Shown: positions 14,324 to 29,333 of the stretch, piece by piece | How the letters are laid out: the number at the start of each line of letters is the position of its first letter | Position numbering within the stretch: position 1 is the stretch's first letter | NCBI RefSeq assembly: GCF_003122215.1 | Contig: NZ_QEYD01000003.1 | Coordinates: 248,001 to 312,000 of the forward strand | From: Pararhodobacter marinus | Lineage (GTDB): Bacteria > Pseudomonadota > Alphaproteobacteria > Rhodobacterales > Rhodobacteraceae | Direction: 5' to 3' | Length of the DNA: 64,000 nt | Position numbers and translations under genes: made by a program | Notes under the pieces: model-generated | Database searches by the model: none | What the model was told of the DNA's origin: nothing | What the model saw: only the letters and a program-made list of their open reading frames with translations

Positions 14324-15277
14324 TTACTTCTTGGAAAAGCGCGCCATGCCGGGCAGCAACCAGAAGACAGAATTGGCGTCGTCAAGCCTGCCCCAGAAGA
14401 ACTCCCTGCCCAAGCTTTCCAGTCGAGGGATGGCACGTTCCTTAAAGAGCGTTTCGCTCGCTTCGGCCGATTTCTTGTCAGCGAAGGGCTGCGAGATCAT
14501 GCTGATCGTCCACTTGCCGCCGGCCGCCGGGGGGATGCCTGCGTTCAATTCCGCCAGCCTGCGCTTGGTATCGTTCGAAACCCCGATCTTCATGGCCACG
14601 GACTTGTCGCCAAACTCCTTCCGCCGATTGAGCAGCGCATGCCCGTCGCCCTCGAAGACGGCGAGGTAAACGTAGGCCTCGCCGTCCTCGTAATTGGCCG
14701 TGCGCTCGCCGTGACTGCCCGGGAAAGCCCTGGACGGTTTGAACACCTGCCCGAACGGGATCGCTCCCGTCTCTTGGGTTTCCACCGGGGGTTCCCCGAA
14801 GACATTGACCTCCCTAACCTTGATCTTCAGGGCTTGTTCGATCTCGTCGTCATCCAGTTCCGCACCGTGTACGGCCAGTGCTTGCCCGGCCTCGGCGCGG
14901 TAGGAGTTGAAGGCGATCTGACTGATCATCAGCTTCTCCTCAGTACGCCAAGCACGGCGCACCGGGATCGCGTGGCTCCAACGACCCAGCCAGCCTCGCT
15001 CGCTTTTACGTTCCATGCCGACCTTGGAAGCCTTGTCTTCGTCTCGGATTGCGCGCACCTCAATCTCGAGAAAGCCGAGAACGTAGGACCGCTCGGCCTT
15101 GTCAGTCTCGGAAGTGCTGGCGCCGTAGATCATGATCAGATCACCGTCGCTCAGCTTGCGCAGGTAAGCGTCGCGGTCGGTCTCCTTGGACCAACCGACG
15201 TAGCCGTCGTCTTCCGGGCTGAAGCCATAGAAAGAACGAATGCGGATGCGTTTGCCGTTTGGCAGGCCGGTGTTCAT
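14324..15277 (-). CDS. GIY-YIG nuclease-like protein with N-terminal EVE/PUA-like domain
   Basis: A 317-residue protein. The N-terminal ~75 residues (RIRSFYGFSPEDDGYVGW, KLSDGDLIMIYGAS, YVLGFLEIE) read like a PUA/EVE-type domain, a fold that in other proteins binds modified bases. The C-terminal part (about 220-310) has the GIY-YIG layout: AYVYLAVFEGD, then VAMKIGVSNDTKRRLAELN with the catalytic Arg, and later a glutamate in the last helix. I chose the ATG with AAGGAAAT upstream; the open frame extends 57 more codons into non-family sequence. It lies 44 bp behind the type I R-M operon on the same strand and may be co-transcribed. A modification-dependent nuclease is plausible but unproven. 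Confidence 0.55.
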   Translation of the reverse strand: MNTGLPNGKRIRIRSFYGFSPEDDGYVGWSKETDRDAYLRKLSDGDLIMIYGASTSETDKAERSYVLGFLEIEVRAIRDEDKASKVGMERKSERGWLGRWSHAIPVRRAWRTEEKLMISQIAFNSYRAEAGQALAVHGAELDDDEIEQALKIKVREVNVFGEPPVETQETGAIPFGQVFKPSRAFPGSHGERTANYEDGEAYVYLAVFEGDGHALLNRRKEFGDKSVAMKIGVSNDTKRRLAELNAGIPPAAGGKWTISMISQPFADKKSAEASETLFKERAIPRLESLGREFFWGRLDDANSVFWLLPGMARFSKK

Positions 15278-15321
15278 GACGTGGATTTCCTTGGGTGGCG
15301 GGCTGCGGATGCCAAGTGGGA

Positions 15322-15792
15322 TCAAACGGGCGGAGGGCGCAGGACCGGCAGACGGTCTTGCTCGGCCAATTCGTTCGACAGTGCGGTCAGGCGGGAGAGC
15401 GAGATCGGGCGCTGGCCGTTCTTCTGCATCGCACCAGCAGCGGCCCATGCGACGGGACCGGGGCCGTTGAAGATTACGCGGATCGGGCCGCCAACGGGGC
15501 GGTGCAGGACGATCAGGTGTTCGGGCTCGTGGCGGATTGCGACGCCACGGCCCTGGGTCAGCTTGATTTCCACCTGGCGACCATCGCGGGCGCGGGCGTC
15601 GTGGCCGTGGGTGGAGGCCGGATTCAGGTCAAGGTCGAACATGTAGGCGGCGACGACCTCGCCAATGCTGCCGACGAGATGGCCGTCGAGGGTGAATTTC
15701 CGACCGGGGAATATCCGTTCGAGGCCATCGGCCGCGGTGTAGAGATCGTCGAGCAAGGCGGCGACGCGCGCCCAGTCGACGTGGTCGCTCAT
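15322..15792 (-). CDS. DUF6998-like protein with PD-(D/E)XK-type motif, coupled to hsdS
   Basis: A 156-residue protein. VGSIGEVVAAYMFDLDL, GHDARARDGRQVEIKLTQ give a glutamate, a GHD aspartate and an E-x-K triad in the order of the PD-(D/E)XK nuclease fold. A tail without motifs follows. Similar small proteins commonly sit beside restriction-modification genes. Its ATG overlaps the hsdS stop by 4 nt, so it is translated as part of the hsd operon. Whether it cuts DNA or accessorises the R-M complex is unknown. Confidence 0.6.
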   Translation of the reverse strand: MSDHVDWARVAALLDDLYTAADGLERIFPGRKFTLDGHLVGSIGEVVAAYMFDLDLNPASTHGHDARARDGRQVEIKLTQGRGVAIRHEPEHLIVLHRPVGGPIRVIFNGPGPVAWAAAGAMQKNGQRPISLSRLTALSNELAEQDRLPVLRPPPV

Positions 15793-21393: not shown

Positions 21394-21895
21394 GTCGCCT
21401 TACCGGAATACTCAACCACATGATCAATGTCTGACGCTACTTTGCTTTCATGCGCGAAGACAAGGATGTGTGTCGGGAGGAGGCCAGGCGGTGGCCCTGA
21501 TCTGATCCCCAGAACTGCACCGCTTGTAGCCGGCTTTCTTCACTACGCTGCCTTGGCGGGCCGCGGGTGCCCACACTCCTTCGCAGCCAACATCGAGAAC
21601 GTGTCGGGAGGGAACCGGTATCGGACGCTTCCTAACACCTGCTTAGGCTGATCCCTGCTGGGCCTGCCGCGCCACCGGTTGGCACATGTTCGAAACACTT
21701 GAAGCGTGAACCAGAATGAGACGGAGGTCGTGCCTCGCTGCGACCAGCGCAAACAATGCCCCCGAGCGCGTGGCGCCGAGCCGACCCATCACGCCACAGC
21801 CAATAAAGTGATTTACCTAACACTCTACCATCACTTTTCTCTTGTGGTAAATTAGTGATTCAGATATCTCACCGTTATCAGTCAGGAGAATCGAT
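21394..21895. other. Intergenic region between hsdR and the glycosylase operon, with a candidate promoter
   Basis: About 500 bp between divergent operons. No gene was recognised in the first 400 bp. The last 90 bp are AT-rich and hold an inverted repeat, ATTTACC (21811-21817) and GGTAAAT (21846-21852), plus two direct AGTGATT words. A TTGTGG / TATCTC promoter-like pair follows. This looks like a regulated promoter for the rightward three-gene operon. Confidence 0.4.
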
Positions 21896-22162
21896 ATGCG
21901 CCTTACTCGCCATGCTGACCGCCGCCGCATCCAACGCAGCCTGCCCATCGAGGTTGTCTCTACGATCCACGCCTACGGCACCGAGCGGCACGCGAAAGGT
22001 GCCCTCAGCCTGACTCTGGATGGTCGCGCCATCGCACTGGCGGCTGAACATGACCGTCGCCTCTCCGCCGAGCTCGAGCGCTACCGCGGAGCCTACATCA
22101 TCGTCGCATCCGGCGATCGTGTTGTAACAGCTGCGCGCCGTACGCGTCGCTTTCGCCGCTAA
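21896..22162 (+). CDS. Small DUF4258-like protein, first gene of the glycosylase operon
   Basis: An 88-residue basic protein. It opens with RLTRHADRRRIQRSLP, the type of start seen in DUF4258-like small proteins, and ends with ERYRGAYIIVASGDRVVTAA and an RRTRRFRR tail. DUF4258 proteins resemble RelE-fold toxins in size but usually lack proven activity. A CAGGAGAA ribosome site precedes the ATG. The next gene starts 25 bp downstream with its own ribosome site. Function unknown. Confidence 0.55.
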   Translation: MRLTRHADRRRIQRSLPIEVVSTIHAYGTERHAKGALSLTLDGRAIALAAEHDRRLSAELERYRGAYIIVASGDRVVTAARRTRRFRR

Positions 22163-22186
22163 ACAATCGCTTTGAGGAGTCCTGAC

Positions 22187-22972
22187 TTGGCTCAGAACCT
22201 TGCAATCGCCCGCGCAATGCTTCCGCGCATCACGTCCCAAAATTGCCATGACCCGCTGAAAGCCCCCGAACTGCTTCTTGAAGCGTCTGGTGCGATCCGC
22301 ATTATCTACGCGCCGTTCGACCGCATCGAGATGAGCGCTCGCCTGGTCGTGGTCGGCATCACGCCTGGCATGACACAAGCCGTCAACGCCCTGATCGCTG
22401 CAAAAGCAGCGTCTAACGCACTCAGTCTCGAAGCAACGCTTGCGAAAGCGAAATTGACAGCCAGCTTCTCTGGCAGTTCAATCCGCAACAATCTGGTCGC
22501 GATGCTCGACGCCATCGGTGTCGCGAAGCACTTCGGGCAACAAAGCACGGCCGCTATGTTTCAGCCCGGTGCGACGGACGTGCATTTTACGTCAGCGCTG
22601 CGCTATCCTGTCTTCGTGGATGGCAAGAACTACAACGGCTCGCCTGACATGCTGTCGACGCCTATCTTGCGCAAGCAGATTGATACGTATCTGGCCGAGG
22701 AAGCGCAGCTGCTGGGCAAGGCAATCTGGCTGCCGCTTGGCCCTAAGGCCGAGGCCGCTGTGTCTCATCTTGCCAAGGAAGGGCTTCTTGATCCTGCTCG
22801 TATCTTGTCCGGAATGCCGCATCCAAGTGGAGCCAATGCCGAGCGTGTCGCTGTATTCCTTGGCCGCAAGAAGCCTGAAGACGCGTCACGCCAAACAAAT
22901 CCATTGCCTTTGATTGCGGCACATCAGCGGCTCAAGGCCCAGATCGCGAATCTCGAAAGGAACGCCGCATGA
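22187..22972 (+). CDS. Uracil-DNA-glycosylase-superfamily protein
   Basis: A 261-residue protein (TTG start, GAGGAG 7 nt upstream). VVVGITPGMTQ matches the UDG-superfamily motif 1 loop, and SGMPHPSGANAERVAVFLG carries the HPSG motif 2 loop that pushes into the DNA minor groove. The segment between (TSALRYPVFVDGKNYNG) is specific to a less studied branch. UDG-superfamily enzymes excise uracil or modified bases; in phage defence a member of this superfamily has been shown to excise hypermodified phage bases. The start inside an R-M-bearing transposon suggests a defence rather than repair role, by inference. It overlaps the next gene by 4 nt. Confidence 0.65.
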   Translation: MAQNLAIARAMLPRITSQNCHDPLKAPELLLEASGAIRIIYAPFDRIEMSARLVVVGITPGMTQAVNALIAAKAASNALSLEATLAKAKLTASFSGSSIRNNLVAMLDAIGVAKHFGQQSTAAMFQPGATDVHFTSALRYPVFVDGKNYNGSPDMLSTPILRKQIDTYLAEEAQLLGKAIWLPLGPKAEAAVSHLAKEGLLDPARILSGMPHPSGANAERVAVFLGRKKPEDASRQTNPLPLIAAHQRLKAQIANLERNAA

Positions 22973-23910
22973 GCAAGGCCGGTGAGATCCCTTACACTTG
23001 GAAGCAGATCGAGGATCAAGTCCGCGAAGCGATCCTTTGCCAAGCAAGCATCTTGGAGACCTTCGGCCCTTGGCAGGATCAGAACTTGGTTGCGGATTAC
23101 CTCTGCCTTGATCGTGACTCTTTTCGTGGACGGTCAGTCGAAGATGTTAGGTCCGAGGAGCTCGACATCTCAGAACACCAAATGCTCATCTTGGTAAAAG
23201 CAGCATATAATTATGCCTATCAGTTGGACGGAGCGTCGAGAAAAATCGATTCCGAATGGCATGATGTCGGTGCACTGATGGAAGGTTTTCCTCAAACAGA
23301 CGCCAACGGAGAACCATCGCCGTTTTGCATGCTGAACGATTTCCCCCTCAGACGAATGCTCGAAACATTCTACGCGCGGTTCGCTCTCTACGACTCTGAT
23401 GAGTTCGAGTATATCGAGTATCAGCCAAGCATCCGAGAACTGTCCTTGCTTGCGAACATGACGGTTCCTGCTGTGCGAACCTCACTCAGCAAAGAGGGCT
23501 TCAAGCTCGAAAAAGTGCAGCGCATTTCTCGTGGCAACCAAGAAGAAGCGTCGTTCCGCCTCAACACGGCCGATGCCAGACTGTGGCTTTCGCGTCGCCG
23601 CGGGTTCATTCCGCAGCGGTCGCAAGATCTGGTGGCGCAGATGGCTCAGATCATCTCAATGCTCCTCACGGACAAGTCAGCGAGCTTCCCGGAACTACTC
23701 AGCCGGTTGCTCGACCTTCGTCAGATCAAATCGGAGGATCTTGCATCCGAAGCTGACTTGGATCCGGCGTGGCTGTCCGATCTAACCACGGGAGCCGAAG
23801 CCGCTCCGGATATTGAGGCGCTGCGCCGGCTTGCCAATGCGTTGGAGTTACCGGAGCCGGAGTTCGCAGCCGCTGCTGTCTCGCACCTTGTCTCCATGAT
23901 GCGAACGTGA
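22969..23910 (+). CDS. Unrecognised HTH-containing protein, coupled to the glycosylase
   Basis: A 313-residue soluble acidic protein, no known family. The middle (about residues 145-200) resembles a helix-turn-helix followed by a wing: IRELSLLANMTVPAVRTSL, then EASFRLNTADARLWLSRRRG. The C-terminus (about 240-300) looks like a second, XRE-like helical unit (SEADLDPAWLSDL, IEALRRLANALELP). The ATG overlaps the glycosylase stop by 4 nt. It could autoregulate the operon or guide the glycosylase to DNA. Neither is shown by sequence alone. Confidence 0.55.
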   Translation: MSKAGEIPYTWKQIEDQVREAILCQASILETFGPWQDQNLVADYLCLDRDSFRGRSVEDVRSEELDISEHQMLILVKAAYNYAYQLDGASRKIDSEWHDVGALMEGFPQTDANGEPSPFCMLNDFPLRRMLETFYARFALYDSDEFEYIEYQPSIRELSLLANMTVPAVRTSLSKEGFKLEKVQRISRGNQEEASFRLNTADARLWLSRRRGFIPQRSQDLVAQMAQIISMLLTDKSASFPELLSRLLDLRQIKSEDLASEADLDPAWLSDLTTGAEAAPDIEALRRLANALELPEPEFAAAAVSHLVSMMRT

Positions 23911-24088: not shown

Positions 24089-25054
24089 TCAATTTGTGGG
24101 AGTCGGAAGGATGCCAGCAACTATCAGGCGAATAACATCACCCGCTCTATCACGAACAAAATAGGTCTGGAGATAAACCTGATCCTTTTTCATGGTGTCA
24201 ATCAAAGTCTGCTTGATTCGAGGTAGGATGTCGTATGGAATGCTGAAGCTAACTGTCACAGCTCCATTTTCAATTTTCACCTTACCCCAGCCATTGTCTT
24301 TATTGAATTGAATTACATCACACAAGAGAGCTGTAATCTCCTTGTCTACAATAGATGTTTCAATTTCCGCAGCCATATTCTGATCCAAGAACAAGACAGG
24401 CTTTAATGCTCCAGAAACTGAGGAAGACACCTCAAGGGAATCCGCGCTCCTTCGCAGCGCAGTCGCCATTTCACTTATCAGCGGGGCAGACATGGCTATC
24501 AATTTTTGACTTCGAGCGAAATCAATTTTCTTTATTGATTCTGTGTTCTCATTCATTCGTTCCTCTCTGGATACTTCAGCAAGGCGACGCCTGACAACAT
24601 CCCGTATATCCGCAGGGACTTCATCAAGCTCGGCTTTTCCTGAGCCTATACTTTCCGCAATCTCATCTACTTTAGACTGAGGTTTGTCCGCGCCCGCACG
24701 GCGCCCGATCGGGCCATATTCTTTCAAAGAATCTTCATCTATCTTTTCAATTACACGTTCGCTGACATAAGCAACCAAATCACCCAAGGACAGATCTATG
24801 AACTCTTCGTCGGACTTGCCTTTGCCGTTGTCTTCCACGTTGATGTTGAACGAGCCGTCGGACTGGCTGACAAGTCTGACATCACGGTTCGACTTACTTG
24901 AGATATTCTTGTTGAACCTTCCAGAAGCTCTGAACTGGGACAACTTCACGAGAAGGCGAGCAGCGGCATACTGAAATCGGGCAGATTCATAGAAGTTCAT
25001 GCGGTGCTCATCCGCAAGCGCACCTTCAAAATGAAAGGTTATGTTCTCGGGCAT
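24089..25054 (-). CDS. Unrecognised 321-residue protein, divergent from a two-TM protein
   Basis: A soluble, charged protein opening with FHFEGALADEHRMNFYESAR, then FQYAAARLLVKLSQFRASG. The N-terminal third looks beta/alpha; the middle (about 95-200) is strongly helical and rich in Glu, Lys and Asp; the C-terminus (FSIPYDILPRIKQTLIDTM) looks beta/alpha again. I vaguely recall similar uncharacterised proteins (DUF7946-like) but cannot confirm. No catalytic motif is evident. Codon use and composition are clearly more AT-rich than the flanking chromosome and the R-M operon, so it was acquired separately. It faces the membrane-protein gene across 134 bp. Confidence 0.6.
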   Translation of the reverse strand: MPENITFHFEGALADEHRMNFYESARFQYAAARLLVKLSQFRASGRFNKNISSKSNRDVRLVSQSDGSFNINVEDNGKGKSDEEFIDLSLGDLVAYVSERVIEKIDEDSLKEYGPIGRRAGADKPQSKVDEIAESIGSGKAELDEVPADIRDVVRRRLAEVSREERMNENTESIKKIDFARSQKLIAMSAPLISEMATALRRSADSLEVSSSVSGALKPVLFLDQNMAAEIETSIVDKEITALLCDVIQFNKDNGWGKVKIENGAVTVSFSIPYDILPRIKQTLIDTMKKDQVYLQTYFVRDRAGDVIRLIVAGILPTPTN

Positions 25055-25188
25055 CCATAAAGTTCCTTGCCTGGCAATGAGTGCATTGCCAATTTCAACG
25101 ACTCATGGTGAAGTACGACCTTGCTACCCTGCCTTACCTCCGCCTTCAATCTCAGAGTGTTATCTTCAGCAAGTGACGGGCGCAAATT

Positions 25189-25809
25189 ATGAATGAAATC
25201 AGCATTGGTGCGGTTGGCGCTGCGACGATTGCCGGCTTGGTGTCGATGCTTGGACTGATCATCGGAAAAGAACAAAAAGTTTCCGAATTCCGACAGATCT
25301 GGATAGACCAACTTAGAAAATGCGTTGTGGACTATCTGGTAAATATTAACGCGGTTTGTGATATTATTAGGCTAAAAGATTCTGGGAAAAGCTATGACGA
25401 TTCCGCTTTGATAGCACACTACAAACTATTGAACGAGGCCAGCCACGGAATAACTTTGCGCGTAAATGATGATGAGGTTCCAGCCAAGGCCCTTTTGGCT
25501 GCGATGAAAGATTTTGAGGCCTTAGCAAGCAACAACAAGTCACTCACCCCGGAGAAGATCAAGGCCGTAGAAAGTCTCTTCATTCGGGATTCGAAAGCAC
25601 TTTTGAAATTTGAGTGGAACAGAGTAAAGAAAGGAGAGAAGATCTTTGTTTGGACGAAAAGAATTATCCTTTTGATAATTATTGTGCTTCTGGTGCTTCT
25701 GGGATACTTTTTGATTGAGAGTTCAAACAACAGTTTATTGGACAGCCAAAGCAATCCAGAACTTCATTTGGTATTTAGTGTCAATAGTGAGATTCACTCA
25801 CTCAGTTGA
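25189..25809 (+). CDS. Two-TM membrane protein, possible effector of an unknown module
   Basis: A 206-residue protein with a hydrophobic segment at residues 6-25 (IGAVGAATIAGLVSMLGLII), then KEQKVSEFRQIWIDQLRKCV. A helical cytoplasmic middle follows, and a second strong helix at about 160-180 (RIILLIIIVLLVLLGYFLI). The KEQKxSEFRQxWID wording after the first helix recurs in membrane proteins of defence islands, as I recall. It is AT-rich like its divergent neighbour. A membrane effector paired with a cytosolic sensor would fit, but this is inference. Confidence 0.55.
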   Translation: MNEISIGAVGAATIAGLVSMLGLIIGKEQKVSEFRQIWIDQLRKCVVDYLVNINAVCDIIRLKDSGKSYDDSALIAHYKLLNEASHGITLRVNDDEVPAKALLAAMKDFEALASNNKSLTPEKIKAVESLFIRDSKALLKFEWNRVKKGEKIFVWTKRIILLIIIVLLVLLGYFLIESSNNSLLDSQSNPELHLVFSVNSEIHSLS

Positions 25810-26373
25810 AACCGCCCAGTTGGTGGCGGCCGACTGACGTTTAGGTAGCTCGTTGCGCCGTATCAAATTTCCGCTCTCGTCACCTTCTATTTAGTCGAGT
25901 GCGGCCGCGGCGAACTTCCGTTTCCCGTCCTGTACATTCGTCATGCTGAATTTCCCGGCTTACTCTCATGGCAGGAGGTCCGCAGGCTTGCTTGTTCGGC
26001 CGGACATTGGGGAATGGCCCGTATCCAGCTTGGCGGTCAAACGCGCTTCCTCGTGGGGTGTTGTGTCCAGTTCGTTGCAAAACGCGAGAACGGATCGGAA
26101 CGGCACGCCCGCATGCATACGGTAGTGGAAGGGCACGTGGCGCAGCCTTCATTTGCAGGGTGGGAGATCGGCGACAAAGTTCAGGGGCACACCATGGCGC
26201 CAGCCGACCATCAACTCTCGAATAAAATATCGCTCAAAATCAATTAGATAGCAGAAGATCGCTCGAGTTCCGAAGATTTTTCCCAGAAATTTCTTCCGTA
26301 ATTCTTGAATGGACCAAGGTTCTCTTCAGGCCAGCCATCGCTCGGCCGATCGCTTCGCAGAGAGAGAACAAAG
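25810..26373. other. Gene-free stretch before tnsA
   Basis: About 560 bp without a convincing gene. Several short overlapping frames exist in all plus-strand frames between 25943 and 26247 but none resembles a known protein. The last 100 bp are AT-rich and probably hold the tnsA promoter. The GC-rich middle may be a relic of another insertion. Confidence 0.35.
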
Positions 26374-27102
26374 ATGGATCACGACTGGAACAGCGGCGAC
26401 GATGAGTGGGCCGAGAGTTTGATGCCTGTCCGCAACCAAGATGTCCGCGCGGCCGACATGCTACCCGCACGACCAAAGACAGACCGTACTCCCGGTGTCG
26501 GCGCCAAGAAGCACTTCTCCTGTGCGTTCGTTCATGGCGCCGGTGCTGGATCGGTCATGAACACCGATAGCCTCACCGAGAAACGGGTCGCGCTCGTCCT
26601 GCTGGCTCGACCGGATGTCGTCGAGCTGGAGAACCAGGTGCTCTTCACATGGCTTGCGCCCCAGGGGGTCACCAGGCGTCACTACTTTGACTTTCGAGCG
26701 ACGATGACGGACGGCAGCCGCACCGCGATCATGGTCAAGTATGATGCCAAGCTCCGGCAAGACGGTTTCCAAGCCGAAATCGCGGAGATTGCAGAGCACG
26801 TCACCCCGGACTTTGCCGACCGCGTGACCCTGATGACCGAAAAGCACCTCGACCCAGTCGACGTGTTCAATGCCACGCTGTTCAATTCCGTCCGTCATCC
26901 CGATGAGGACGCCGATGCCATCATGCGCGAGGCGGTCAGAGGACTGAGCGGAGCCGCAAGGATCAGCGACCTGATTGATCGTACCGGTTTGAAAGGCCGC
27001 GGCTTCCGATCCATTGCGCGGCTGATCGCGGCACGTGAACTTCAGCTCCGGGATCGCGATCGCGTGGCCTATGAGAGCTTTGTCCTGCGGAGGGCCGCCT
27101 GA
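26374..27102 (+). CDS. tnsA: TnsA-like transposon endonuclease
   Basis: A 242-residue protein. SLTEKRVALVLLARPDV (Glu69), HYFDFRATMTDG (Asp106) and TAIMVKYD (Lys122) give the E...D...K arrangement of TnsA, the restriction-enzyme-like subunit that makes the 5' cuts at Tn7 ends; in E. coli TnsA these are E63, D114 and K132. The start chosen follows AGAGAGAA and removes 23 codons of non-family sequence. Its stop overlaps the tnsB start by one base (TGATG), so the two are translationally coupled. With TnsA the element should move by cut-and-paste. Confidence 0.75.
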   Translation: MDHDWNSGDDEWAESLMPVRNQDVRAADMLPARPKTDRTPGVGAKKHFSCAFVHGAGAGSVMNTDSLTEKRVALVLLARPDVVELENQVLFTWLAPQGVTRRHYFDFRATMTDGSRTAIMVKYDAKLRQDGFQAEIAEIAEHVTPDFADRVTLMTEKHLDPVDVFNATLFNSVRHPDEDADAIMREAVRGLSGAARISDLIDRTGLKGRGFRSIARLIAARELQLRDRDRVAYESFVLRRAA

Positions 27103-29333
27103 TGCTCGATGTTCAGGTCAGCCCCAGTCTCCCGCGTTTCGCGTTCGGCAGGTATGACGAGGTGATCCTCGACGGCATCTCATACCGCGCGACGGATTGC
27201 AGCGACGATGGCTACATACTCGTCCGAACCGACGCCAGTGACGTTGCAGAGTCCTTCTCCCATGCCGTCCTGTCTCAGCGGGTCATCAACGGCACGCTGG
27301 AACATCGTCGTGACGAGTTCCTTTCTCAGCATGCGAGGCGGCGCTTGCGCCAACCGACACGGGAGCTCTCGACTCTTTCGCCGAAGACACAACGCAAGGC
27401 GAAGAACCATGAGGCCCTCGTGCTTGCGTTTCTCGAGTTGGAAAAGGAAGGCAAGGTCAAGCGGACCGAGGATGCAACCAAGGAAGCCCTTGAAGAAATC
27501 AAGTTTCGCGCCGGCAAGTACTATTCGATCGCGAGCGAGGCAGATGGCGGCCAGTTTGCTCGAAACACGCGGGTGTCGCCGGAGAAAGTCAGTGCGAGCC
27601 GGCTACTGAAGCGGGTTGCCCCTTATTCGCGCGACGGCCTTTCTGCGCTCTACGGTCAGGACACTCAGAACCGCCGAGAGCGCCGTATCGGTCCGGATGA
27701 GCTGTGCCTGCTGACACTGACAATTCGGAACTACCTGTCTCCGGAGCGGCCTTCCATCGCTGACATTGTCGATGATGTCAGCAGAGCCTTCCGAGCCGAA
27801 AACCTCCGTCGCAAGGCCCTGTTCGAGCAAGGGTCCGCAGGTCAAGGCTCCGGACAGCCGACGTCCTATCTGGTGCCGCCGTCGCGCGAGACCATCCGTC
27901 GCGAGATCAACAAACTCGACCCCTTTGAGGTTGTTGCGGCCCGACATGGTCTCGATGCAGCTCGCAAGAAGTTTGCCCCGGTCGGCACGGGGATGACTCT
28001 GACACGGCCACTCGAGCGGGTGGAGATGGACGCCTGGAAAGTCGATCTCAAGACGATCATGTCAGAGGCCGGGATCTGGTCGATGCTCGATGAAGAGGAG
28101 AAGGCGGCCTTCGGTCTGGATATGGGCAAGAAGACGCGCTGGTTCCTGGTTGCCGCGATGTGTGCGACGACCCGCTGCATCCTCGCCATGAAGCTGGCGC
28201 GCGCCGAAAGCGGCCGTGCTGCGATGCAGACAATCGACATGATCGTGCGCGACAAGGGGCATTGGGCAGATGCCGTGGGCACTCTGACCCCCTGGAGCAT
28301 GTCCGGCACTCCGGAGCTTATCGTCACGGACGCAGGGTCCGGGTTCATCGATTTCGACACGCGTACCGCGGCGACCGATCTCGGTATCAACATCGACGCA
28401 GGTCCGGCGGGGATGCCCGAGTTTCGCGGCAGGATCGAACGGATGTTCGGCACGATGGCCGGCAGCTTCATCGGACGCTTCACGGGGCGGACGTTCAGCA
28501 ACACTATCGCCAAGGGCGATTACGACTCTGACAAGCGCGCCGCCCTGACTTCGGAGGAGCTGAGCGAAGCCCTCGTGCGCTGGGTCGTGGACGTCTATCA
28601 TCGTCGTCCACACGCGGGCCTCGGCGGAGAAACGCCCCTGAATTGTTGGACCCGCCTCGTCGACAAATACGGTGTCGCGCCGATGCCGTCGCTGGAGCGC
28701 CGTCGCAAGGCACTGGGAACGCGGACGAAGTACACGGTCACGAAGACAGGCATCACGATCCTCGGCATTCGCTACCATTCCGACGCGCTGGCGCGGTGGT
28801 TCATGCATGCTCGGGATCCGGAGGTGCGCGTGCGTTGGTATTCCGAGGATCTCGGTGCCATCGCCGTGGAATTGGACGGCGTCTGGGTTGAGATCCCCTC
28901 GGTGCTGACGCGTTTCCGCGGTCAGCGCGCGGGCGTCTGGCTCCGGACCGTGCGCGAAATCCGTGCTGCTTACGCCGCGGAAGCCGCAGTCAGCGAAGCG
29001 ATCATCGCCCGGACCATGGACCATATTGTCGCCCTGAACGCCAACGCGATGGCGCGCCAAGGGTTGTTCGTCGAGGATTTTTCCGAAGAGCGGCTCAAGA
29101 AGCTGGACGCCACTCTGATGATCGGCTTCCGGGTCGAGGACACGCCCCGTGCTGCCACCGTGCCGACCGGCGAGGATGGCCTCGGGATCGATCTGCCGAC
29201 GCGCCGTAGCCCCGGCGCCGACCACGCCCAACCTGAAGCAAGCAGCGGGCCCGATATCTGCGAGGCGACAGTCGTCGATGATGTCTACGACGTGCCAGAT
29301 CTCGATGACGATTGGTCGATCGGAGAAAAGTGA
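27102..29333 (+). CDS. tnsB: TnsB/TniA-type DDE transposase
   Basis: A 743-residue Mu/TnsB-family transposase. The catalytic residues are Asp310 (RVEMDAWKVD), Asp410 (LIVTDAGSGF) and Glu446 (FRGRIERMFGTM), a DD35E spacing as in TnsB. The N-terminal ~290 residues should hold the site-specific DNA-binding domains; the C-terminal ~150 contain the Mu-type beta barrel and a tail that in Tn7 contacts TnsC. It makes the 3' cuts and joins the ends to target DNA. A strong hairpin follows 23 bp after the stop, so the small genes behind it are a separate unit. Confidence 0.9.
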   Translation: MLDVQVSPSLPRFAFGRYDEVILDGISYRATDCSDDGYILVRTDASDVAESFSHAVLSQRVINGTLEHRRDEFLSQHARRRLRQPTRELSTLSPKTQRKAKNHEALVLAFLELEKEGKVKRTEDATKEALEEIKFRAGKYYSIASEADGGQFARNTRVSPEKVSASRLLKRVAPYSRDGLSALYGQDTQNRRERRIGPDELCLLTLTIRNYLSPERPSIADIVDDVSRAFRAENLRRKALFEQGSAGQGSGQPTSYLVPPSRETIRREINKLDPFEVVAARHGLDAARKKFAPVGTGMTLTRPLERVEMDAWKVDLKTIMSEAGIWSMLDEEEKAAFGLDMGKKTRWFLVAAMCATTRCILAMKLARAESGRAAMQTIDMIVRDKGHWADAVGTLTPWSMSGTPELIVTDAGSGFIDFDTRTAATDLGINIDAGPAGMPEFRGRIERMFGTMAGSFIGRFTGRTFSNTIAKGDYDSDKRAALTSEELSEALVRWVVDVYHRRPHAGLGGETPLNCWTRLVDKYGVAPMPSLERRRKALGTRTKYTVTKTGITILGIRYHSDALARWFMHARDPEVRVRWYSEDLGAIAVELDGVWVEIPSVLTRFRGQRAGVWLRTVREIRAAYAAEAAVSEAIIARTMDHIVALNANAMARQGLFVEDFSEERLKKLDATLMIGFRVEDTPRAATVPTGEDGLGIDLPTRRSPGADHAQPEASSGPDICEATVVDDVYDVPDLDDDWSIGEK

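What the first reader, a model, noticed from the sequence alone, without database searches (positions are those of the whole stretch)
21811..23910. Three-gene operon built around a UDG-superfamily enzyme
A small DUF4258-like protein, a UDG-superfamily protein (GITPG and HPSG loops) and an HTH protein are tightly coupled. The promoter before them holds an inverted repeat. UDG-superfamily enzymes have a precedent in phage defence by removing modified phage bases. In a restriction-bearing transposon this could be a base-excision defence with its own regulator.
Basis: partly seen in the sequence, partly recalled or inferred. Interest (0 to 1): 0.65.

Follow-up and report, generated by a model that had tools for sequence, protein, structure and literature searches.

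The report
Toxin-linked base-excision defence operon
A mobile three-gene bacterial operon pairs an unusual DNA-base-removing enzyme with a toxin-like protein and a DNA-binding regulator; it probably helps bacteria attack foreign DNA that carries altered bases, though nobody has tested this.

Summary
Three tight genes (DUF4258-type 21896-22162; UDG-superfamily 22187-22972; HTH 22969-23910) follow a perfect dyad, AAAGTGAT-N17-ATCACTTT. The enzyme is not housekeeping: it folds like a UDG (pLDDT 96) but forms its own clade (100/99). GITPG has Thr in 71 of 72 homologues, and Ser stands in 71 of 72 where family-4 UDGs align Asn (weak alignment). The genome has a separate family-4 UDG. Of 80 glycosylase loci from other genomes, 61 keep the HTH gene and 45 keep both partners, in several orders. 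New here: the small protein models as a RelE/ParE-toxin fold, so the other two genes look like a toxin-antitoxin pair. In two genomes that pair stands without the glycosylase, before a GIY-YIG/exonuclease protein. In two other loci a DUF4258 relative with another HTH type precedes a helicase. Best reading: a mobile base-excision defence enzyme under toxin-antitoxin-like control, acting on a modified base. Activity, substrate and defence are inferred, and a PADLOC neighbour test did not support enrichment. Antiviral glycosylases (Brig1-3, Dag1/2) are known; their sequences could not be compared, so the enzyme may already be described. The exchangeable toxin-like controller is the new part.

The parts
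21805..21837 (.). Perfect dyad AAAGTGAT-N17-ATCACTTT upstream of o1: candidate operator
   Evidence: coordinates; L002 has the same dyad and spacing; spacing 17 highest over 27 loci, 0 of 60 shuffled sets reach it
21896..22162 (+). o1 (D): 88-aa DUF4258-type protein, RelE/ParE-like fold in the model
   Evidence: 13 of 43 homologues hit DUF4258; pLDDT 90.1; ranks 1-16 are RelE/ParE-type toxins, Z 5.9-4.9
22174..22189 (+). GAGGAG ribosome-binding-like site and TTG start of o2
22187..22972 (+). o2 (U): 261-aa UDG-superfamily protein of a separate clade
22355..22369 (+). Motif GITPG (o2 residues 57-61)
22820..22831 (+). Motif HPSG (o2 residues 212-215)
22969..23910 (+). o3 (H): 313-aa protein with a C-terminal Cro/C1-type HTH

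Best explanation
The operon is a mobile, self-regulated base-excision defence module. U (o2) is a divergent UDG-superfamily DNA glycosylase that most likely flips out and removes a modified, non-uracil base from incoming phage or plasmid DNA; the abasic sites then block its replication. H (o3) binds the upstream dyad and represses the operon. D (o1), a RelE/ParE-fold protein, forms with H a toxin-antitoxin-like pair that keeps the operon under control and may act as a back-up when H is lost or titrated. Shown: the gene set, the predicted fold, the separate clade, the residue changes, the synteny, the conserved dyad, and D/H beside other DNA-directed proteins. Inferred: glycosylase activity, a modified-base substrate, the defence role, repression by H, any toxicity of D.
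For: UDG-superfamily fold: the first 41 Foldseek rows are UDG-superfamily enzymes (one at E<=0.001); VIA Z 9.6, 3.9 A over 165 residues, to a family-4 UDG. Separate clade, 100/99; the own genome has a family-4 UDG elsewhere. Motif positions kept almost without exception but altered from housekeeping UDGs. Synteny in 61 (H) and 45 (D and H) of 80 loci; D, U and H distances correlate (r 0.75-0.80, 46 loci). Conserved dyad. Sporadic: 7 of 390 genomes of the order, own included, at E<=1e-25; on 35 plasmid records. Mobile and restriction families among nearest neighbours, not in control genes. UDG-superfamily antiviral enzymes exist (PMC11078745, PMC13160076, passages). D model resembles RelE-type toxins and DUF4258 is listed as a BECR-fold toxin family of unknown target (PMC11980606, passages).
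Against: No assay. PADLOC models matched by 146 nearest neighbours (134) were fewer than by 146 control genes (222; a type I system in the control adds many models), so defence-island enrichment is not shown. The residue mapping rests on a weak profile alignment (E 0.025, probability 1.9). D fold Z is under 8, and Foldseek alone gave nothing below E 0.88. 19 of 80 loci hold neither partner, so the trio is not obligatory. Nearest relative L037 lacks a clear dyad (best score 6 of 8).
Confidence: 0.5

Rival explanations
1. D and H are an ordinary type II toxin-antitoxin addiction module; U is cargo that gains stability by linkage and works on its own.
For: D-H pairs without U; U without D and H in 19 of 80 loci; RelE-like fold of D.
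Against: Three genes of one strand that keep together through several gene orders with 4-nt overlaps, correlated distances, and DNA-directed proteins as recurrent third genes.
Confidence: 0.2
2. U itself is a toxin that removes bases from the host's own DNA and D or H neutralises it: a tripartite toxin-antitoxin system.
For: Tight operon; altered active-site positions; abasic sites would be toxic.
Against: U occurs without D and H in 19 of 80 loci and without D in 35 of 80, so neither is a needed antidote; other neutralisers were not excluded.
Confidence: 0.1
3. U is an accessory repair enzyme for uracil or damaged bases carried by mobile elements.
For: UDG fold and motif frame; carried on plasmids.
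Against: Separate clade; Thr and Ser at conserved positions; the host already has a family-4 UDG; controlled by its own regulator genes.
Confidence: 0.12
4. U has lost catalysis and binds DNA as a sensor or blocking protein.
For: Positions that are usually catalytic or base-reading are Thr and Ser (their usual roles are recalled).
Against: T59, Q64 and S136 are kept in 71 of 72 and H212 in 72 of 72, and residue 45 is acidic in 72 of 72, as expected of a working enzyme with altered chemistry.
Confidence: 0.08

Closest known systems
Brig1 and Brig3 antiviral DNA glycosylases (PMC11078745, PMC13160076; passages read)
   Same: UDG-superfamily fold; Brig1 is also 261 aa, and its paper reports an S. 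tokodaii UDG as best structural match, as found here; found among defence and mobile genes
   Different: Partners reported in the passages are other genes (for example bapA, ADP-ribosyl glycohydrolase), not DUF4258 and HTH; their catalytic residues (Brig3 N50, E55, W100, D127; Brig1 Y121, E147) could not be aligned here for lack of sequence
Brig2, Dag1 and Dag2 (Getz et al. preprint, not held; known only from citing passages)
   Same: Antiviral glycosylases against modified thymine (Brig2, in Pseudomonas) and guanine (Dag1/2); several o2 homologues are from Pseudomonas
   Different: Unknown: sequences not available; o2 may belong here
Family-4 UDG, UdgX and SMUG1
   Same: Fold and motif frame
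   Different: GITPG in place of GE(A/G)PG or GEQPG; separate clade from the family-4 and UdgX rows; only one Cys in o2, so no set of iron-sulphur ligands
DUF4258 (PF14076) toxins of the RelE/ParE superfamily (PMC11980606, passages)
   Same: Family match in homologues, RelE-like model, HTH gene alongside
   Different: Here the pair comes with a third gene, a glycosylase; toxicity unknown
PabI restriction glycosylases (PMC10273834, passages)
   Same: Defence by base excision as a principle
   Different: Half-pipe fold and a partner methyltransferase; neither is found in o1-o3

Membership tests
UDG superfamily | UDG alpha/beta fold | tested here: met
UDG superfamily | Motif frame GxxPG ... HPS | tested here: met
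   G57, P60, H212, P213, S214 in 72 of 72; T59 and G61 in 71 of 72
UDG superfamily | DNA glycosylase activity | not testable with these tools
   needs an assay
Housekeeping UDG family 1 (Ung) | GQDPY and HPSPLS motifs, grouping with Ung | tested here: not met
Housekeeping UDG family 4 | GE(A/G)PG motif, iron-sulphur cysteines, grouping with family 4 | tested here: not met
   GITPG, one Cys in the o2 sequence, separate clade; the cysteine feature is recalled
SMUG1 / MUG / family 5 | Grouping with these families | tested here: inconclusive
   SMUG1 is the top Foldseek hit, but 7 of 28 housekeeping rows, some apparently of these kinds, were left out of the tree
Brig antiviral glycosylases | Catalytic residues of Brig1 or Brig3 | tested here: inconclusive
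   no Brig sequence at hand; by spacing alone Q64 would match Brig1 Q81 and Brig3 E55, and no acidic residue is conserved near Brig1 E147 / Brig3 D127 (residues; o2 columns)
Brig antiviral glycosylases | Protection against phages with modified bases | not testable with these tools
   needs plaque assays
DUF4258 / RelE-ParE type II toxin-antitoxin | DUF4258 profile match or RelE-like fold of the small protein | tested here: met
   13 of 43; Z 5.9-4.9; modest, Foldseek alone not significant
DUF4258 / RelE-ParE type II toxin-antitoxin | DNA-binding partner gene next to it | tested here: met
   o3 in the window; D and H together in 45 of 80 loci, not always adjacent
DUF4258 / RelE-ParE type II toxin-antitoxin | Toxicity of D neutralised by H | not testable with these tools
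   needs expression tests
PabI restriction glycosylase | Half-pipe fold with a cognate methyltransferase | tested here: not met
   o2 has the UDG fold; none of o1-o3 is a methyltransferase; features from passages

The most novel reading that the evidence does not exclude
A toxin-antitoxin-like pair (DUF4258 RelE-fold protein plus HTH protein) serves as an exchangeable control and back-up cassette for DNA-attacking defence enzymes. The pair runs a modified-base glycosylase here and a GIY-YIG/exonuclease protein in other genomes; the RelE-fold half, with another HTH type, stands before a helicase. When a phage disables the enzyme or drains the HTH protein, the toxin is freed. The glycosylase would be a new antiviral branch with a Thr/Ser active site and its own base specificity.
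Probability: 0.27. Interest if true: 0.8.

Novelty: new variant of a known kind. Interest (0 to 1): 0.6.

Why it matters
Base excision is a recent addition to bacterial immunity, and few enzyme families and substrates are known. A family found in at least 320 genome stretches with altered motif residues is a direct lead to another base modification that bacteria recognise. If a toxin-like pair controls swappable DNA enzymes, it also gives a handle for finding hidden defence genes and a testable account of how harmful DNA enzymes are kept in check.

Tried and rejected
Csx16/Cas_VVA1548 hits of o1 (E 0.0073-0.055): taken as chance beside the DUF4258 and RelE evidence. TrbA hit of o3 (E 1e-6): covers only the HTH. 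Solved structures by sequence: only 2 insignificant hits for o2 (E 0.71 and 0.91), none for the o2 alignment at E<=5. Viral fold library for o2: none at E<=0.001. Foldseek for o1: best E 0.88. PADLOC enrichment of neighbours: not shown. Consensus promoter/terminator scan: not clearly above chance (1 promoter-like against 1.1 expected, 5 terminator-like against 3.2). Rfam and tRNA genes: none in the window. Transposon end repeats: no convincing pair among those listed. Actinomycetota: 2 of 296 genomes match, one being the genome of L094 used as centre and the other covering model positions 5-70 only. Brig1 could not be located for lack of a sequence.

Papers: none holds DUF4258, uracil-DNA glycosylase and phage together; the listings show the Brig papers and none whose listing describes this operon. 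Getz et al. is not held, so a prior description cannot be excluded. DefensePredictor (PMC13092281, figure-legend passages only) names UDG among domains of predicted systems not yet validated as defensive.

Rows dropped before counts: A2 used 42 of 55 o1 rows and the window in place of its copy; A4 36 of 72 o3 rows; A3 72 of 104 o2 rows (duplicates, fragments and some others left out by hand). The tree used 21 of 28 housekeeping UDGs (the other 7 lacked my two-motif pattern), 16 o2-family rows and one neighbour protein (a second one lacked the pattern). Neighbour set: 146 of 161 called genes; 15, mostly short, were dropped to fit. Control: 146 of 236 genes, drawn at random from 20 regions whose coordinates I chose in 11 genomes; control genes are longer on average (324 against 256 aa). 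The first operator test used 6 loci that I chose after seeing the upstream sequences and left out the nearest relative L037; with 10-bp arms its best spacing was 13, not 17. I repeated it without choice on 27 loci and rest on that. The distance test left out 9 loci as duplicates or degenerate; L013 was left out without my checking that it is either.

Full report
What is there. The three ORFs are tight: o1 21896-22162; o2 with a TTG start at 22187 after GAGGAG; o3 22969-23910, overlapping o2 by ATGA. Upstream lies a perfect dyad, AAAGTGAT-N17-ATCACTTT, at 21805-21837. Locus L002, whose glycosylase is 65% identical, has the same dyad and spacing. A first test on six loci picked by eye gave spacing 17 as best. 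Repeated on all 27 non-duplicate loci of order o1-o2-o3, spacing 17 is again the highest of 4-25 (168; next 163), and 0 of 60 dinucleotide-shuffled sets reach it at any spacing (maximum 161). The place of the best match varies, and the nearest relative L037 shows only 6 of 8 pairs.

The glycosylase. The window copy has a sub-threshold PF03167 match; 64 of 72 family members scanned match at E<=0.01. AlphaFold2 gives pLDDT 96.2 and pTM 0.92. The first 41 Foldseek PDB rows are UDG-superfamily enzymes (SMUG1, UdgX, UNG, TDG, a Thermotoga UDG), one of them at E<=0.001. VIA-align gives Z 9.6 over 165 residues at 3.9 A for the Sulfolobus tokodaii family-4 UDG. The Brig1 paper reports a UDG of the same organism as its best Dali match, Z 9.2 (PMC11078745, passage).

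Not a housekeeping UDG. The same genome has one other PF03167 gene, of family-4 type (G000:C28). In a tree of 38 rows the 16 o2-family rows are one side of a branch with support 100/99, apart from the family-1, family-4, UdgX and GQAPG rows (seven housekeeping rows without the motif pair were left out, so SMUG-like and family-5-like branches are barely covered). Across 72 members T59 is kept in 71, Q64 in 71, S136 in 71 and H212 in 72, and residue 45 is Asp or Glu in 72. A weak profile alignment (E 0.025, probability 1.9) sets GITPG on GEAPG and S136 on the Asn of the family-4 strand motif. That this Asn reads uracil is recalled, not from a call. From this I infer a non-uracil substrate.

Spread and synteny. 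A scan of genomes of 84,980 species found 320 stretches encoding a relative; the best 80 loci were kept. Of these 80, 61 hold H, 45 D, 45 both and 19 neither within the fetched stretch (up to 6 kb each side); 10 lie near a contig end. Gene orders vary (D-U-H, H-D-U, H-U, U-H, D-H-U, H-U-D), all on one strand save one of 104 rows, some of which are duplicates. D, U and H distances correlate over 46 loci (r 0.75-0.80; 0 of 2000 permutations each). In the window's order, 12 of 390 genomes match at E<=0.001 and 7, own included, at E<=1e-25: sporadic. Thirty-five plasmid records match at E<=1e-5, among them an Agrobacterium tumefaciens plasmid with the same three genes.

Setting. The operon lies between a type I restriction system (specificity, N6 methylase and EcoEI-type R subunit) and TnsA/TnsB-like genes. 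The flanks are mostly not shared: among loci L002-L105, hsdM-like genes occur in 4, hsdS-like in 2 and hsdR-like in 1, and the other eight flanking genes tested in none (many stretches are short). Among 146 nearest neighbours in other loci, 17 of the 19 Pfam families with two or more members are integrase, transposase, resolvase, MmeI or Mrr restriction domains or related; among 146 control genes none of the 11 such families is. PADLOC did not show enrichment: 134 models matched against 222 in the control, where a type I system adds many. The mobile and restriction setting is therefore supported; the defence-island claim is not.

The small protein. DUF4258 matches 13 of 43 o1 family members. 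The o1 model (pLDDT 90.1) aligns best with RelE, ParE, YoeB, BrnT and YafQ toxins: ranks 1-16, Z 5.9-4.9. Such Z values alone can mean a common arrangement, and Foldseek alone gave nothing below E 0.88; the agreement with DUF4258 is what carries the call. DUF4258 is listed as a BECR-fold toxin family of unknown target (PMC11980606, table passage). So D plus H looks like a toxin-antitoxin pair.

The pair without the glycosylase. In G006 and G223, which gave no U match (not among the 12), D and H stand together and are followed by a related protein in orders D-H-X and H-D-X. X has an exonuclease domain (PF00929, E 3e-13 and 1.2e-14) and an N-terminal part that matches plasmid proteins annotated as GIY-YIG nuclease (query residues 2-184, 34%); Pfam itself gave no GIY-YIG hit at E<=0.01. 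H-like proteins also precede X in a viral contig (L220) and in a Ruegeria plasmid (L223), where X is split. In a Rhodovastum plasmid and in G407 a D homologue follows an HTH gene of another type and precedes a protein annotated as UvrD-helicase in the former; the two are 55% identical. In an Azospirillum plasmid H follows a GLNPGG...HPS protein that looks like another glycosylase by motif only. In Belnapia L100 a second PF03167-like gene lies just upstream of the o2 homologue (E 2.3e-4). These few cases suggest a controller pair with exchangeable DNA-directed enzymes; their frequency was not measured.

Mechanism. Most likely H represses the operon through the dyad; U scans DNA and removes a modified base from invading DNA; and the abasic sites stop replication, as others report for Brig1 and Brig3. 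D is either a co-regulator with H or a toxin held by H. Since 19 of 80 loci hold U with neither partner, the partners are not needed for U to be tolerated, which speaks against U being a host-killing toxin.

Novelty. Antiviral UDG-superfamily glycosylases are known: Brig1 and Brig3 (passages read), Brig2 and Dag1/Dag2 (known only from citing passages). Brig2 protects Pseudomonas, and several o2 homologues come from Pseudomonas, so o2 may fall in that group; this could not be tested. No listing describes the operon, but the key preprint is not held. I file it as a new variant of a known kind.

Noticed in passing
window 26305-29333: TnsA-like (NF033179 E 0.0027, below cut-off) and TnsB-like (PADLOC TnsB E 2.5e-10; Mu-transpos_C) genes; I saw no TnsC-like gene beside them, but did not search for one.
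   Followed up: partly
window 14324-15792: A protein with a weak T5orf172 match (E 0.0047) and a DUF6998 protein (E 3e-49) follow the type I restriction genes.
   Followed up: no
window 24089-25809: Two genes of low third-position GC (0.47-0.48) with only sub-threshold family matches (DUF7946 E 6e-4; DUF7248 E 1.4e-3) lie between the operon and the TnsA/B-like genes.
   Followed up: no
L208:9627-11147; L220:4125-5243; L103:5032-5922: A C-terminal stretch of about 75 residues is shared between the exonuclease protein of L208 and H-like proteins of L220 and L103 (49-59% identity).
   Followed up: partly
L222:3256-4095: Alloyangia plasmid: a gene annotated as uracil-DNA glycosylase family (GQDPYP type) lies close to, and divergent from, a GIY-YIG/exonuclease relative.
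   Followed up: partly
L010:5090-5606: Vibrio plasmid: an annotated Phd/YoeB toxin-antitoxin pair lies upstream of an o2 homologue that has no D or H nearby.
   Followed up: no
L085:5953-7308: The Propylenella o2 homologue has a long C-terminal extension without a Pfam match at E<=0.01.
   Followed up: partly
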